NCBI RefSeq assembly: GCF_027257155.1
Contig: NZ_JAPWDU010000006.1
Coordinates: 248,001-312,000, forward strand
Length of the DNA: 64,000 nucleotides
DNA from: Cerasicoccus sp. TK19100
GTDB lineage: Bacteria; Verrucomicrobiota; Verrucomicrobiia; Opitutales; Cerasicoccaceae
Reading direction: 5' to 3'
The translations under genes and the position numbers were made by a program. The notes under the pieces are model-generated. The model was not told the DNA's origin. It worked only from the letters and a program-made list of their open reading frames with translations, and made no database searches. Shown here piece after piece: positions 8,272 through 49,024 of the stretch (its first letter is position 1; the number at the start of each line of letters is the position of its first letter).

Positions 8272-8607
8272 CTAACTACCCGTCGCCGACGGGATGCGCG
8301 TCGCGCGCGGGATGTCTTGTATCGGCGAGGAGTGCTCTTGGATGATTTTCCAGCCGTCGCCCTCGCGGCGGAGGGGCATCGTGGTGCGGATGTGGATTTG
8401 CCAGCGGGACTTATCCGGGCGCACGTAATACTTAAAGAAATGCTCGAACGAGACGAGCGCGGTGTCGCCCTCGGTCCAGACCTGGGCGAAGCGTTGGCCC
8501 GCATTGCATTTGCCCGCAGACTTCGCCCCATTGAACCTAGCGTTGTTTGGGGTCGCATCGCATTGGCCCAAAATCTTAGCCCTTTTGATCCCGAAGGGAT
8601 CGATCAT
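8272..8607 (-). pseudogene. Truncated NTF2/SnoaL-like protein
   Basis: The C-terminal half reads like the end of an NTF2-like (SnoaL/DUF4440) domain: VWTEGDTALVSFEHFFKYYV, IHIRTTMPLRREGDGWKIIQEHSSPI. The expected N-terminal helices are absent; instead the frame runs back into a REP sequence (8586-8681), so the codons before about 8535 are unrelated. I infer that insertion or recombination at the RAYT/REP element removed the 5' part of the gene. It could instead be a short functional domain protein, but no sensible start exists outside the REP. Confidence 0.55.
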
Positions 8608-8681
8608 TCATAGACGGGGGTTTCTAACCCCCGATTCCAGGATGCCCCAAGGAATCGTCGCGATGCGACAGTTCAATCCCC
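8586..8681 (+). repeat. REP sequence left of the RAYT gene
   Basis: Contains three nested palindromes: GATCCCGAAGGGATC, GGGGGTTTCTAACCCCC and GTCGCGATGCGAC. The same order appears at 9773-9866 and, inverted, at 9202-9267. With the inverted copy it brackets the transposase gene, the standard arrangement of a RAYT locus. Confidence 0.85.
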
Positions 8682-8721
8682 GGTTGCATTGATGTATTCC
8701 GTGCAGGCAAGAACCTCACAC

Positions 8722-9186
8722 CTAATCAAAGACATAGTCCCGCTCATATTCGATGCCATGCTTGTCGAGAAATGCGGTGTATTCATCTTCAAATGAGCGC
8801 TTTGTGTGATGTTCGCGCTGGTTGCTAATATACTCGACGACATCGCTCTCGCTTGACCGGCTCACGGTGAACGCCGCATAGCCATCCTGCCATGCTAGGC
8901 GACGATTCGGGCCGAGGATATTCTCTCGGTTGATGTATTTGGAAGATCCGCCCTTCAGGAGCTTCATCGCTTCGGCCAGCGAAAGTGTTTTCGGAATGTG
9001 AATCAGTGCATGCACATGGTTTTCGACACCCCCAATACGAACCGCCACCATGCCATTGTTTCGGGCCGTTGCGGAAAGCACACGCCAGACACTTTGTTCT
9101 ACTTCGAGCGAGATGAGCGGTGCCCGTTCTTTGGTGCTCCAAATGCAATGGTAGAGAAGGTGGGTCAGGGTGCTCGCCATACGCAT
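8722..9186 (-). CDS. RAYT: REP-associated Y1 (IS200-like) transposase
   Basis: Single-strand DNA transposase of the HUH/Y1 family that acts on REP hairpins. About 154 residues from the ATG at 9186 (9180 also possible: MASTLTHLLYHCIWSTKER; an extension to 9210 would run into the REP). The motif order is that of Transposase_17: YHCIWSTKER near the start, the metal-binding HUH motif in ENHVHALIHIP, LKGGSSKYIN, WQDGYAAFTVS, and the probable catalytic tyrosine in VVEYISNQREHH. Length is normal for a RAYT and no frameshift is seen, so it may be active. It is flanked by inverted REPs (8586-8681 and 9202-9267). Confidence 0.9.
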   Translation of the reverse strand: MRMASTLTHLLYHCIWSTKERAPLISLEVEQSVWRVLSATARNNGMVAVRIGGVENHVHALIHIPKTLSLAEAMKLLKGGSSKYINRENILGPNRRLAWQDGYAAFTVSRSSESDVVEYISNQREHHTKRSFEDEYTAFLDKHGIEYERDYVFD

Positions 9187-9201
9187 TGTGATACGAATAA
9201 T

Positions 9202-9267
9202 CCGTCGCATTGCGACGAAAATTATTGGGCTTGGTTGGCCGGGGGTTAAAACCCCCGTCTATGATTA
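9202..9267 (-). repeat. REP sequence right of the RAYT gene (inverted copy)
   Basis: Reverse complement of the left REP: GTCGCATTGCGAC palindrome, then GGGGGTTAAAACCCCC and TCTATGATTAAT. It overlaps the extreme 5' extension of the transposase frame, which favours the shorter start at 9186 or 9180. Confidence 0.8.
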
Positions 9268-9389
9268 ATTAGTGCCTTCGGCACATAGCAGGTGAATTAG
9301 GTGCGGTTGATTAGATGTGGTGGGTCGGTTTGACTGATTAGATGTGGTGGGGCGGTGTGGCGTAGGTCAGCGGAACTTAGATCGCCTCG

Positions 9390-9752
9390 TCGAAGGCTGG
9401 TTTAGCATAGGCTGGGCCCATCTAAGTCCGGTGTCGCTAGCCTGCGTGCCTAAGCTGTCGTAGCCTAGGATAGCGTGTTCAAAGGCTGGAGTAGCATAGG
9501 ATAACGCATCGAAGGCTGGCGTAGTATAGGCTGGGACGTCTAAGGCCGGTGTCGCTAGCCTGCATGCCTAAGCTGTCGTAGCCTGGGATGGCGTGTTCAA
9601 AGGCTGGAGTAGCATAGGATAACGCATCGAAGGCTGGCGTAACGTAGGTTGGGGGGGCGTCTAATGCTGGTGTCTTGTAGCTTTGCGCTTCTAAGACCTC
9701 GTATCCTGGAACGGCGTGTATAAAGAGGCCGGTAGCGTAGGCTGGCGTAGAT
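9390..9752. repeat. Hierarchical tandem repeat, about 119 bp x 3
   Basis: Units start at 9390, 9508 and 9627 with TCGAAGGCTGG, giving periods of 118 and 119 bp. Units 1 and 2 are nearly identical; unit 3 has decayed. Each unit is itself made of four degenerate subunits of about 30 bp related to AAGGCTGGAGTAGCATAGG. No reading frame is conserved. A smaller 28-bp duplication (GATTAGATGTGGTGGG) lies just upstream at about 9311-9362. Confidence 0.8.
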
Positions 9753-9772
9753 AGATTTAATATTCGCAGGAT

Positions 9773-9866
9773 TGATCCCGAAGGGATCGCTCATTCCTAG
9801 ACTGGGGTTTAAACCCCCGGTTTTGGTATGCCCCAAGGGATCGTCGCGATGCGACGGTTCATCTCC
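9773..9866 (+). repeat. Solitary REP sequence
   Basis: Third copy of the REP family of the RAYT locus (GATCCCGAAGGGATC, GGGGTTTAAACCCCC, GTCGCGATGCGAC), direct orientation relative to 8586-8681. It lies about 590 bp from the transposase gene, beyond the 119-bp repeat. Confidence 0.8.
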
Positions 9867-9919
9867 AGTCAATGCAAGGCGCAAAGTTTCAATCGCTTGC
9901 TCCAAAAAAGACCGAACAC

Positions 9920-10103
9920 GTGTTCCCAAAAAACCCGCCCCTCGTTTTCAAAAACAACACCACTTGTGTTGCTTCGACAACAGTAGCTGTGTTGGGGAAA
10001 CAACAGTAGTGTTGTTGGAGTAACATAGCATAGGGCTTTTTCAAAACACAGCATTAGGCTTTTTGAAAAAGCAGCAGTAGTCTTTTGCCAAATACAGCAT
10101 AAG
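9920..10103. repeat. 23-bp hairpin tandem array, copy 1 (eight units)
   Basis: Eight consecutive units of 22-24 bp (starts 9920, 9944, 9966, 9989, 10011, 10035, 10058, 10081), averaging exactly 23 bp. Most contain an internal dyad whose stem varies while pairing is kept: GTGTTG/CAACA units and GCTTTTT/AAAAAGC units, linked by CAGTAG or CAGCATAG. The array ends in GAAACGCTATTTTGGC, as does the second array at 47143-47372. It lies about 83 bp past the aroK stop codon. Confidence 0.85.
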
Positions 10104-10182
10104 GAAACGCTATTTTGGCCCAGCTGCTTCGGTTGGCTCGGCTGCTTCCGTTTGCTGGATTGCTTCGGTTGGCCGGGGAGGC
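10104..10182. repeat. Short repeats between 23-bp array and aroK
   Basis: GAAACGCTATTTTGGC is followed by about three degenerate 18-20-bp units related to TGCTTCGGTTGGCTCGGC, reaching almost to the aroK stop codon. The matching region at 47373-47440 beside dnaX has the same order, so this segment belongs to the same composite element. Confidence 0.65.
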
Positions 10183-10186
10183 CGAG

Positions 10187-10714
10187 CTAGGCGTGGTTGA
10201 CGGCCTGGCGGATGGCGGCGGCGATTTGGGCGGGGCTCAGGGCTTCGGCGTCGATGGTGGCGTCGGCGTACTTAGCGTAGAGCGGTTCACGCTCGTTAAA
10301 GAGGGCGTCGATGGTTTGCCCGGGCTGCACGACGAGGCCGCGTTCTGCGGGGTTGCCGATGCGGGCCTTGATCGTCTCATGGCTGAGCTTGAGCCACACG
10401 ATGGTCGCGAAGGTCTGCAGGTGACGCATCGCCTCAGCGGAGTAAACGACGCTGCCGCCGGTGGCGATGACGGTCGCGTCCGCCTGCAGGGTGAGCACGG
10501 CCTCGGCTTCCTTTTGCTTAAAGGCGGCGAGCCCCACTTGGTCGATAATGCCCTTGAGGCTGGTGCCGTTGATTTCGCGGATCCGGTCGTCGGTGTCGAC
10601 GAAGGCGTATTGCAGCTCCTGCGCCAGCAATTTGCCGACGGTGCTTTTGCCGGCGCCCGCCATCCCGATGAGTGCGATTGATCGCTTAGGTTGCATGTCT
10701 TGCCCGTCGCGCAT
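10187..10714 (-). CDS. aroK: Shikimate kinase
   Basis: P-loop kinase phosphorylating shikimate with ATP, step five of chorismate synthesis. 175 residues; MQPKRSIAL at 10696 is an alternative and perhaps better start. The Walker A motif is GMAGAGKST, followed by the shikimate-binding aspartate in FVDTDDRI, the IATGGSVV loop, the VWLKLS strand and the lid arginine region NPAERGLV. The fold order and size match AroK/AroL. It is a single-gene unit flanked downstream by the 23-bp hairpin array and upstream by about 450 bp of non-coding DNA with a repeat pair. Confidence 0.93.
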   Translation of the reverse strand: MRDGQDMQPKRSIALIGMAGAGKSTVGKLLAQELQYAFVDTDDRIREINGTSLKGIIDQVGLAAFKQKEAEAVLTLQADATVIATGGSVVYSAEAMRHLQTFATIVWLKLSHETIKARIGNPAERGLVVQPGQTIDALFNEREPLYAKYADATIDAEALSPAQIAAAIRQAVNHA

Positions 10715-11038
10715 GTTGTGTGCCAGAATGGTGCGCGGGCGAGTAGCTCGTCAATGCGCGAAAGGTGAGGCAGTGCACGGCCAGGGAGGCGTGGGTTTTA
10801 ACTGGAAGATCGAGGCCCACGGCGATGCTCAGGTCAAGAAAGGATGAGGAGCCAGCGAGGCGTGGGTGGTTTCTCACGGAGGCACGGAGAGCGCGGAGAG
10901 TGAGAAGGATATTTTATTAAAAGAGATTTAATGGACGTAACGCCCGTTATTGCTGACGGGCATTTTCTGAAGAGTGGCCAAGACAAGCCGAATAGCCGTT
11001 CTCTTTCAGTGGCGATTTCGTTCCGCTATATCAGTCCT
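10715..11038. other. Intergenic region with no recognisable gene
   Basis: No convincing reading frame. A weak hairpin GCCCGT/ACGGGC (10942-10961) followed by ATTTT is visible, as is a purine-rich CGGAGGCACGGAGAGCGCGGAGAG patch near 10880. I see no promoter or RNA gene I can support. Confidence 0.5.
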
Positions 11039-17849: not shown

Positions 17850-17981
17850 GCGGTTTCAGAGGATCAGTAGTCAGCGCCCGGTGGCAACGGTTTTTTTCTG
17901 CGCTTCAAAGGTAGCTGTAGAGGGGAGAGTGCGTGGGATGCACTGACTCGCACAGATTGTAATCTGGGCGCATTAGGTGGT

Positions 17982-18080
17982 CACGTCGTAATGTAGGGCT
18001 CGCGCTTGCGCGCCGCCGCATCCTGCTGGCTAAGAGGCAATGGCGGCGTCGCGCAAGCGCGAGCCCTACATTACGACGTG
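17982..18080. repeat. REPIN-like pair, TGTAGGGCTCGCGC family, copy 2
   Basis: Arms of 38 bp (left from 17982, CACGTCGTAATGTAGGGCTC; right ending at 18080) are reverse complements with one mismatch, around a 23-bp core. It fills most of the gap between cdsA and ispC. A shorter copy lies at 11039-11122. Confidence 0.88.
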
Positions 18081-44145: not shown

Positions 44146-44382
44146 CCCCAACGGGGCTACGCAACTATAGCCCAGGGTTGGCTTGAGGCCGCAGAGCGGC
44201 TGAACGCCTACCCTGGGAATACGAATACGTACATTGCCTATCCCAACGGGATTGCGCAAAACGACATCTTGCGCAGCCCCGTTGGGGCTGGGAGATAACC
44301 GCGCATTCGGTTTCCCAGGGTAGCGCTTCCCGCAAGCGGTTCGCTATAACCCTGGGCTATGGTTGCGTAGCCCCGTTTGGGC
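44146..44382. repeat. Large nested inverted repeat (about 237 bp)
   Basis: The outer arms start CCCCAACGGGGCTACGCAAC and match, inverted, the right end GGTTGCGTAGCCCCGTTTGG over most of 75 bp, including GCCCAGGGTT and TACCCTGGGAA blocks. A further inverted pair (CCCAACGGGATTGCGC with GCGCAGCCCCGTTGGG) lies at the centre. No gene is supported. The rest of 43916-44509 holds nothing recognisable apart from A+T-rich sequence. Confidence 0.75.
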
Positions 44383-47142: not shown

Positions 47143-47372
47143 GTGTGTGAAAAAGGTGCCCATGGGTGTTTAGAAAACAACAGTAGCTGTGTTGCTCCGA
47201 CAACAGTGGCTATGTTGACACAACAACAGTGGCTGTGTTGGGGAAACAACAGTAGTGGCTTTTTCAAAACACAGCATGCTGCTTTTTGAAAACATAGCAT
47301 AGGGCTTTTTGAAAAAGCCCCAGTAGGCTTTTCGGAAAAGAAGCATGCGTCTTTTACCAAACACAGCATAGG
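47143..47372. repeat. 23-bp hairpin tandem array, copy 2 (ten exact 23-bp units)
   Basis: Ten consecutive 23-bp units with no length variation (47143, 47166, 47189, ... 47350). Stems change from unit to unit but stay paired: TGTTT/AAACA, TGTTG/CAACA, GCTTTTT/AAAAAGC, CTTTTC/GAAAAG. Linkers alternate CAGTAGCT/CAGTGGCT and CAGCATGCT/TAGCATAGG. It is followed by GAAACGCTATTTTGGCTCGG and short TTGCTTCGGTTGGC repeats, exactly as in copy 1 near aroK, and ends 77 bp short of the dnaX stop codon. The frame changes in each unit, so it is not coding. Confidence 0.9.
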
Positions 47373-47449
47373 GAAACGCTATTTTGGCTCGGTTGCTTCG
47401 GTTGGCTCCGTCGCTTGGGCTGGCCTGTTGTCTGGGTTTGCGTGCGAGG

Positions 47450-49024
47450 CTACTTCAGCACATCGGGATTCACTTCCTCGACATACTTGAAGTCGATGCG
47501 CAGGAGCTCGGTGAGGAGGTGCTCGGTGTCGTCGGAGATGGCTTCGAGGGCGGTTTTAAACTCCTCGGTGCCGGGGCCGTATTTTTCGGAGTCAAACTCG
47601 TCGGCGCGGCGCAGGGTGGGTTCGGGGGCGTCGGCTTCGCCGTCATCGGGCTGCTCGTCAGCGGTGTGAGATGCGCGGTTCCACTCGTCTTCGGTGGGGC
47701 CGCCCGGGTGGTCACCGCCTTCGGGGTGCTCGGTGTCGATTCCCGTGGCGCGCGCCACCGGGCCTCGCGGCGGGCTGGCGGGGGGCAGCGCTTTGCCCTT
47801 GGGCCCATTCGACGAACTCAGGGCAGGCAACGAACCCAATGGCGGAATCGGGCCCTGGCTAGCCGGGGCTTGCGGTGTCTCTATTTTTTTTTGGCCGGCG
47901 TCTTGGGGGAGGCCGGCTGCGAGATTGGAAAGTTCCTTGATGACTGAGTCGATCGCCCGGGTGCGGCTTTGGTCGACGGCGCGCAGCAGGGCGACTTCAA
48001 AATTAACACGTTGGCTGAGCCCGCTGCGGACCTGGCTTTCGCCGGATTGCAGGGCGTCGAGCATGCGGGTCAGAGACTCCGCAGTCAGCGGGGTGCCGAG
48101 GCTGTCGGTGGAGCCGCCACTGCGGATGGCCTCGATCATGGCCTCGCGCACGCGGGACTGGATGTCCATCAGCACACGGTAGAGGTCGCGGCCCTCGGCG
48201 GCGATTTCCTCGATGGCGGCAAAGAGCTTCTGGTAGTCGGCGATGGCGATGGCCTGCACGATCTCGTTGATCTTGGCTGGCGCGGCCAGGCCATAGACGT
48301 CGAGCGCCTTGGCTTCGGTGATGTCGTTGCCACAGAAAGAAATCAGCTGGTCGAGGATGGACTGCGCGTCGCGCATACCGCCGTCGGCCATGCGGGCGAT
48401 GGCCTTCAGGGCACCGTCGTCGACTTGGATGCTGTCGGCTTGGGCAATGTGCGTCAGGCGCTCAATGATCTTTTCGTCCGGGATCGGGCGGAACTCAAAG
48501 CGCTGGCAGCGGGAGACGACTGTGGGGAGGACTTTGTTGGCCTCGGTCGTGGCGAAAATGAATTTTACGTGCGCGGGCGGCTCTTCGAGGGTCTTCAGGA
48601 GCGCGTTCCACGCCTGATTCGAGAGCATGTGCACCTCGTCGATGATGTAGATCTTGAACTGGCCCTGGGTGGGGGCGTATTGGCACTCCTCACGCAGGTC
48701 GCGGATCTGGTCGACGCCGTTGTTGCTGGCACCGTCGATCTCGATGACGTCCATGCAGGAGCCGCTCATGATGGCCTGGGAGATGGGCGTGGAGTCGTCG
48801 GGCGCGACCTGGGGGCCGCCCTCGGCGTTGAGCGCCTTGGCGAAGATGCGGGCGGTGGTCGTCTTGCCGGTGCCGCGCGGGCCGACAAACAGGTAGGCGT
48901 GCGCGATGCGGTTGGATTCGATCGCGTTCTTCAGGGTGCGGACGATGTGCTCCTGTCCGACCATTTCGTCGAACTGCTTGGGGCGCCAGCGCCGCGCGAT
49001 GACTTGATATGCCTCTTGCGCCAT
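47450..49024 (-). CDS. dnaX: DNA polymerase III subunits gamma and tau
   Basis: Clamp-loader ATPase. 524 residues: domain I-II AAA+ with Walker [19 protein letters not shown], Walker [11 protein letters not shown], sensor [22 protein letters not shown] and LLKTLEEPP; domain III collar to about residue 360; then a Pro/Gly/Glu-rich linker and a C-terminal segment ending DVLK. The zinc-module cysteines normally between Walker A and B are absent: the region reads [19 protein letters not shown], with a single Cys left. A run of nine A (codons 378-381) lies just after domain III. Neighbours: tamB is divergent (98 bp), the hairpin array lies downstream. Confidence 0.94.
47884..47892 (-). promoter_or_regulatory. 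Nine-adenine slippery run in dnaX
   Basis: On the coding strand CAA-AAA-AAA-ATA (codons 378-381) contains nine consecutive A. Loss of one A places TAG directly after codon 380; gain of one A leads to TAG 11 codons later. Either product keeps domains I-III and loses the tau-specific tail. Thermus dnaX uses an A9 run in this way to make gamma by transcriptional slippage (established knowledge). Confidence 0.6.

What the first reader, a model, noticed from the sequence alone, without database searches (positions are those of the whole stretch)
47143..47372. Exact 23-bp hairpin array downstream of dnaX with unit-to-unit compensatory stems
Ten units, all 23 bp, each containing a small dyad. Stem bases change between units (TGTTG/CAACA, GCTTTTT/AAAAAGC, CTTTTC/GAAAAG, TGTTT/AAACA) while pairing is preserved, which argues for selection on structure of RNA or single-stranded DNA. 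It is not coding (period not a multiple of 3) and not CRISPR (no constant repeat plus variable spacer). A related array exists at 9920-10103. I know of no described family with this design.
Basis: partly seen in the sequence, partly recalled or inferred. Interest (0 to 1): 0.8.

Follow-up and report, generated by a model that had tools for sequence, protein, structure and literature searches.

The report
Frame-locked mosaic palindrome arrays in Cerasicoccus
A marine bacterium and some close relatives carry dozens of scattered DNA arrays, often just beyond the ends of genes, built from short inverted words repeated every 23 letters; the words are swapped between copies but the spacing almost never changes, which looks like a new variety of mosaic repeat DNA rather than one conserved RNA structure.

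Summary
In detail: ten 23-bp units lie downstream of dnaX, and a sister array of about eight units lies at 9926-10109. The stated cause does not. Over 36 aligned copies RNAalifold finds no consensus structure and the boundary stems covary no more than shuffles; the "compensatory stems" are different words at different places in the array. It is a dispersed element: at least 35, 18 and 24 places in three of four congeneric genomes, none found in the fourth, and 3 of 273 genomes of the order. Units are pairs of inverted words about 11.5 bp apart; 357 of 370 word spacings are multiples of 23. Words come from a species-biased lexicon used in both orientations and were replaced in register between two orthologous arrays. 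Elements prefer convergent gaps (31 of 62, against 6 of 87 control gaps). Self-complementarity exceeds a tandem-repeat control. Other lexicons at 22-23-bp pitch occur in the genus and probably in a sister genus. Best reading: a BIME-like mosaic palindromic repeat acting at DNA level with an unusually strict two-turn frame; mobiliser and binding partner unknown.

The parts
47149..47378 (-). array 1: ten 23-nt rows, read on the dnaX strand
47241..47355 (-). rows 2-6 of array 1, left word AAAAG-type
47172..47240 (-). rows 7-9 of array 1, left word CAACA-type
47379..47424 (-). leader between dnaX and array 1 (GCCAACCGAAGCAACCGAGCCAAAATAG and 18-nt repeats), present at many but not all G000 copies
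47450..49024 (-). dnaX (DNA polymerase III gamma/tau), upstream neighbour of array 1
9926..10109 (-). array 2: about eight 23-nt rows, seven of them in clear register
10187..10714 (-). shikimate kinase gene, upstream neighbour of array 2

Best explanation
This is one copy of a genus-restricted interspersed mosaic palindromic repeat, comparable in architecture to a BIME (bacterial interspersed mosaic element). An element typically has six to eight clear units of 23 bp, each made of two inverted 7-9-bp words about 11.5 bp apart, so half-sites alternate in orientation about once per helical turn. Shown: dispersal, strict register, a shared block order, a species-biased lexicon in both orientations, in-register word replacement at one well-aligned orthologous place, preference for convergent 3' ends, strong self-complementarity without a fold common to the copies. 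Inferred: copies spread as mobile or recombining DNA and exchange words by ectopic gene conversion or template switching. Inferred: the kept feature is a two-turn spacing read at DNA (or transient single-strand hairpin) level by a nuclease or a DNA-binding protein. Inferred: copies survive mainly beyond gene ends because promoters are spared there; they may incidentally act as two-way transcription barriers.
For: At least 35, 18 and 24 places in G000, G001, G003 with the same block order. 36 copies align over 92 columns without a gap; 357 of 370 spacings are multiples of 23. No consensus fold, no boundary covariation, yet self-complementary beyond a tandem-repeat control. N-word variant by species in both orientations. 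Orthologous arrays L146/L171 beside 3.7 kb of flank at 93.7% identity: one half nearly identical, the other rewritten in register. Convergent gaps 31 of 62 against 6 of 87; little strand preference, 17:10.
Against: No cognate transposase, no target duplication and no empty site was shown. The only Y1 protein of the window is an IS200 type below the REP-transposase cut-off with other palindromes on both sides. GTAG is at only 90 of 233 class-I stems. The within-unit covariation score and the shared fold of six G001 copies leave room for structural selection.
Confidence: 0.55

Rival explanations
1. Structured 3' RNA: the arrays are transcribed with the upstream gene and act as mRNA stabilisers, two-way terminators or RNA-protein docking sites.
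For: Preference for convergent gene ends, strong folding, terminator-like AAAAGCC..GGCTTTT units at some array ends, a shared fold in six G001 copies.
Against: No consensus structure over 36 copies, no boundary covariation, about equal folding on both strands, little strand preference (17:10). Ordinary terminator-like hairpins with a T-run exist elsewhere in the genome.
Confidence: 0.2
2. Host-functional protein-binding arrays: alternating half-sites at two-turn pitch nucleate a DNA-binding protein at gene ends (nucleoid organisation, insulation, collision control), and the species-biased words reflect coevolution with that protein.
For: Spacing kept while words change, lexicon shared by both orientations, several lexicons at the same 22-23-bp pitch, arrays of other lexicons at the dnaX 3' end of two congeners.
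Against: No protein identified; congener G002 has no detected copy; 23 bp is not an exact multiple of 10.5 bp.
Confidence: 0.17
3. Neutral satellite: slippage, hairpin-primed synthesis and conversion alone make and keep the pattern.
For: No conserved fold; several independent lexicons; other minisatellites (18, 30, 118 bp) lie near the arrays.
Against: The same block order recurs at dozens of unlinked places; few off-register spacings despite large divergence; bias to convergent gaps.
Confidence: 0.08

Closest known systems
REP sequences and BIMEs (GTAG- or CGTC-tagged palindromes; RAYT-associated)
   Same: Short palindromic units, regular spacing, alternating orientation, intergenic, frequent between convergent genes (passages of PMC2817692, and PMC3733652). 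GTAG is the commonest tetramer at the foot of class-I stems: 90 of 233, and 51 of 85 in G003.
   Different: Units are 23 bp made of about 11.5-bp half-sites; words are exchanged; the tag is not constant; no RAYT flanked by the same repeats was found; tens rather than hundreds of places.
CRISPR arrays
   Same: Regular tandem architecture.
   Different: No constant repeat and no unique spacers; dispersed at dozens of places; no Rfam family of any kind at its gathering score in the window.
Tandem or two-way intrinsic terminators
   Same: Near gene ends; some units read AAAAGCC..GGCTTTT.
   Different: Most units lack a matched G+C-rich stem and T-run, up to about a dozen units in a row.

Membership tests
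REP/BIME | short palindromic units, regularly spaced in alternating orientation | tested here: met
REP/BIME | intergenic, preferring convergent or unidirectional gaps | tested here: met
   0 of 77 inside a called ORF; 31 convergent, 27 tandem, 4 divergent of 62
REP/BIME | constant GTAG (or CGTC) tag at the foot of the stem | tested here: not met
   GTAG at 90 of 233 class-I stems; CGTC was not counted
REP/BIME | cognate RAYT flanked by the same repeats | tested here: inconclusive
   4 of 13 Y1 genes lie within 3 kb of an element, but the seven Y1 loci printed show no element on both sides, and the window's Y1 has other palindromes and scores 26.1 bits against a cut-off of 80 for the REP transposase model
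structured RNA family | covarying consensus structure | tested here: not met
   partial signals
structured RNA family | match to a known family | tested here: not met
   gathering thresholds, window only
CRISPR | constant repeat with unique spacers | tested here: not met
mobile element | target duplication or empty site | not tested
   intergenic flanks at dnaX too diverged between species to compare
structured RNA family | transcription of the array | not testable with these tools
   no RNA-seq at hand

The most novel reading that the evidence does not exclude
A general class of frame-locked, word-coded DNA arrays in this bacterial family: the kept feature is a 22-23-bp pitch of alternating half-sites, while the words form exchangeable, species-biased lexicons that turn over together with a trans-acting recogniser (an unknown DNA-binding protein or hairpin nuclease) acting beyond gene ends.
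Probability: 0.3. Interest if true: 0.8.

Novelty: new variant of a known kind. Interest (0 to 1): 0.6.

Why it matters
Bacterial interspersed palindromes are usually defined by one conserved palindrome and a transposase. Here sequence is exchanged as words while the spacing is kept nearly without exception, at dozens of places, with lexicons shared by both orientations and several unrelated lexicons at the same pitch. That separates geometry from sequence and makes a question testable: what reads a two-turn alternating dyad, and how are dispersed copies rewritten in register? The family could also serve as a marker of ectopic conversion between short dispersed repeats.

Tried and rejected
Compensatory RNA stems: tested by positional permutation, 49 and 45 word-pair combinations in G000 and G001 (mean z -0.49 and 0.02; best G001 pair reached by 21 of 1000 permutations), RNAalifold and pair counting. 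Rejected as a general rule; the partial signals are in the report.

Coding origin: the period is not a multiple of 3 and no element centre falls inside a called ORF (0 of 77).

RAYT-driven REP: considered; left open. Some Y1 loci were read in a wrong frame by my script, so its protein comparison was not used.

Phage or plasmid origin: no match in phages or plasmids (blastn); no exact match of one pattern in viral contigs.

Wider spread: one exact pattern in genome contigs gave 18 stretches, 11 of them Cerasicoccus frondis; the verrucomicrobial one (L070) was read and looks coding; the other 6, in unrelated taxa, were not read and are taken as chance. The model found 3 of 273 genomes of the order, with stricter filters that can lose weak matches.

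Rows dropped: rest on 42 arrays from the first two searches; left out were L026 and L029 (parts of L025 and L012), L033 and L040 (no array in the stretch printed; L040's own match was not looked at) and the fragmentary L030; one search skipped arrays under 110 nt; searches use 66 of 77 arrays (11 with fewer than three recognised words left out). The word list was chosen after looking at the data, so those counts are descriptive. In one search one G000 place (C4:508400-508500) was added by hand, and the listing was cut, so place counts are approximate lower bounds. The gene caller is home-made, trained on ten window genes, and its control gaps come from the same loci.

Literature: searches listed no description of such arrays in Cerasicoccus; the library holds open-access papers only. 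Seen: passages of PMC3733652 and PMC2817692; all other papers only as search listings.

Full report
WHAT IS THERE. The window lies in a 5.07-Mb, 13-contig genome (G000). Its genus is Cerasicoccus: contig lengths of the congener G001 equal those of C. frondis NBRC 105381 contigs named. Downstream of dnaX the sequence falls into ten 23-nt rows. Read on the dnaX strand, the rows follow a leader; rows 2-6 begin AAAAG, rows 7-9 begin CAACA, row 10 is weaker. Array 2 repeats this downstream of a shikimate kinase gene.

IT IS A DISPERSED FAMILY. BLAST with array 1 gives 73 matches (several per copy, E up to 10) in the own genome, and matches at E <= 0.001 in 4 of 36 genomes: G000, two congeners (G001, G003), and G035, whose single hit is leader-like repeat, not an array. 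A gapless model of four units (36 copies, 92 columns) gives at least 35 places in G000, 18 in G001, 24 in G003 and none in the congener G002, and matches in 3 of 273 genomes of the order, 1 of 88 genera. The copies looked at share the block order, with variants, so they are copies of one element rather than independent tandem expansions.

GEOMETRY AND WORDS. Each unit is a left word and an inverted right word about 11.5 bp apart. Words include AAAAGCC, AACATAGC, AACACAGC, AACAACAG or AACAACCG and, mainly in G003, AGTACAGC and AGTTTCC, with their reverse complements. Of 370 spacings (up to 75 bp) between successive recognised left words in 77 loci, 312 are 23, 35 are 46 and 10 are 69; 13 are something else. 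One word differs by species in both orientations at once: left CAACA against CAACC 27:0 in G000 and 0:18 in G001; right 63:4 and 0:39, a few other variants left out. G003 is mixed: mostly CAACCG (73), with 20 CAACAG, 19 of them in right words. One ancestral change cannot do this; it needs homogenisation across inverted copies, amplification of a rewritten master, or coevolution with a recogniser.

NO COMMON FOLD. Copies are strongly self-complementary: mean z -4.60 and -4.67 on the two strands (37 arrays), and -31.2 and -31.7 kcal per 100 nt against -22.6 and -23.2 for column-permuted tandem controls, 0 of 100 as low (30 arrays). Yet RNAalifold predicts no pair over 36 copies. On longer stretches the consensus of 17 G000 copies is -4.9 and -5.7 kcal/mol while single copies average -44.4 and -45.9. 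Boundary stems are 84.6% paired against 84.9% in shuffles. Positional permutation in 27 G000 elements gives 4.13 of 5 boundary pairs against 4.11 and, over 8 positions, fewer pairs than all 2000 permutations (4.94 against a mean of 5.15); within units 3.90 against 3.87, reached by 98 of 2000. Against this reading: six G001 copies share a fold at -26 to -29 kcal/mol with six doubly changed pairs and more pairing than any of 300 permutations; on the 36 copies within-unit pairing is 68.2% against 67.0% (2 of 500 shuffles reach it) and the covariation score exceeds all 500 shuffles, while pairs changed on both sides are fewer than expected (8 against 10.7); a nested structure around one unit scores similarly (8 of 500). 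Related copies can give such scores without structure, so I read the set as no general fold, with a possible subfamily fold in G001.

PLACE IN THE GENOME. With a home-made codon-usage gene caller, 62 of 77 elements have genes called on both sides: 31 convergent, 27 tandem, 4 divergent. The 87 other gaps of at least 200 bp in the same loci are 6, 55 and 26 (Fisher p 3.5e-9 for convergent, 3.5e-4 for divergent; copies are not independent). In tandem gaps the canonical strand agrees with the genes 17 times and opposes them 10 times. A similar 3'-end preference is reported for REPs (PMC3733652, passage).

TURNOVER. Some arrays hold their place between species. L146 (G000) and L171 (G001) lie beside 3.7 kb of flank at 93.7% identity; one half of the two arrays is nearly identical, the other half is rewritten largely in the other species' words, mostly in register. 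L141/L169 are a second such place, judged by one flank. Eighteen cross-species pairs of loci share at least 500 bp of flank; most were not examined further and some are repeats rather than orthologues. At the dnaX 3' end G001 and G003 lack this family but have other arrays of 22-nt pitch; in G002 the gene ends close to a convergent frame with no array that I could see by eye.

A WIDER CLASS. In samples at preset coordinates (400 kb each of G000, G002 and G004, 398 kb of G003), lag autocorrelation gave 12, 0, 4 and 20 calls. Of the 12 calls whose lag is not a multiple of three, 11 have lag 22, 23 or 44 and one has 14; the multiples of three look largely coding but were not all checked. Of the 15 calls with lag 21-23, 42 or 44 tested against 60 column permutations, 7 fold as well as or better than all but 0-4 controls, all at pitch 22-23; 8 do not, among them all four at pitch 21 and four at pitch 22. 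Words differ: TTAGCACAG, GCGTCGGCGACGC, TACGTCC-GGACGTA and others; the last type occurs in G000 and, at 22 bp (4 of 60 controls), in G004 of another genus. These arrays are short (three or four units), so the class is a lead more than a proof.

MECHANISM. I favour DNA-level mosaic repeats comparable to BIMEs: spread and word exchange by recombination or transposition, survival beyond gene ends, and a two-turn geometry kept by whatever binds or cuts the alternating dyads. Y1 transposase genes are present in the four genomes with arrays (8, 3, 2 and 3 in G000, G001, G003, G004) and absent from G002, where none were found, and four of 13 Y1 genes lie within 3 kb of an element. But the Y1 in the window is an IS200 type beside other palindromes, and the tag of REPs is at 90 of 233 class-I stems. 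So it works like a BIME in architecture, but the membership test fails on the constant tag and is open on the transposase.

VERDICT. What is there is a strictly framed variant of interspersed palindromic repeats with an unusual word grammar.

Noticed in passing
L057:3113-3260; L077-L088: A second dispersed family at 22-nt pitch (TTAGCACAG..CTGTGCTAA words) in G003 and G001, matching in 2 of 4 genomes searched.
   Followed up: partly
L056:3184-3266; L225:2308; L234:13069; L272:18273: 22-nt arrays of GTCGCCGAC/GTCGGCGAC words in three congeners.
   Followed up: partly
L235:11099; L241:10882; L248:7884: TACGTCC..GGACGTA arrays in G000 (23 bp) and in G004 of another genus (22 bp).
   Followed up: partly
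L126, L134, L139, L151, L160, L135: Subfamilies in G000 with other words in the same 23-bp frame (AACACAT..ATGTGTT; AAAGCAT..CGTTTT).
   Followed up: no
window 9303-9760: Another array of roughly 30-nt units with a 118-bp higher-order repeat between the Y1 gene and array 2.
   Followed up: no
window 8580-8690 and 9770-9870: GATCCCGAAGGGATCG palindrome modules on both sides of the IS200-type Y1 gene 8722-9210; similar modules flank a Y1 gene of G001 (L089).
   Followed up: partly
window 17930-18070 and 10750-10870: Long near-perfect hairpins with GTAGGGCTCGCGCTTGCGCGA termini, MITE-like; similar sequence beside L025.
   Followed up: no
window 44202-44321: Intergenic stretch with the most extreme folding score of the window scan (z -9.9), a long self-complementary repeat.
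   Followed up: no
L031, L034, L047 left flanks: G001 copies share an abutting TTCGTGGTTAAATCC repeat, so some elements are nested among other intergenic repeats.
   Followed up: no
G000 boundary between rows -1 and 0: Adjacent words at the block transition are less complementary than chance (5.31 of 9 against 6.06; 999 of 1000 permutations at least as high), as if local perfect palindromes were avoided.
   Followed up: no
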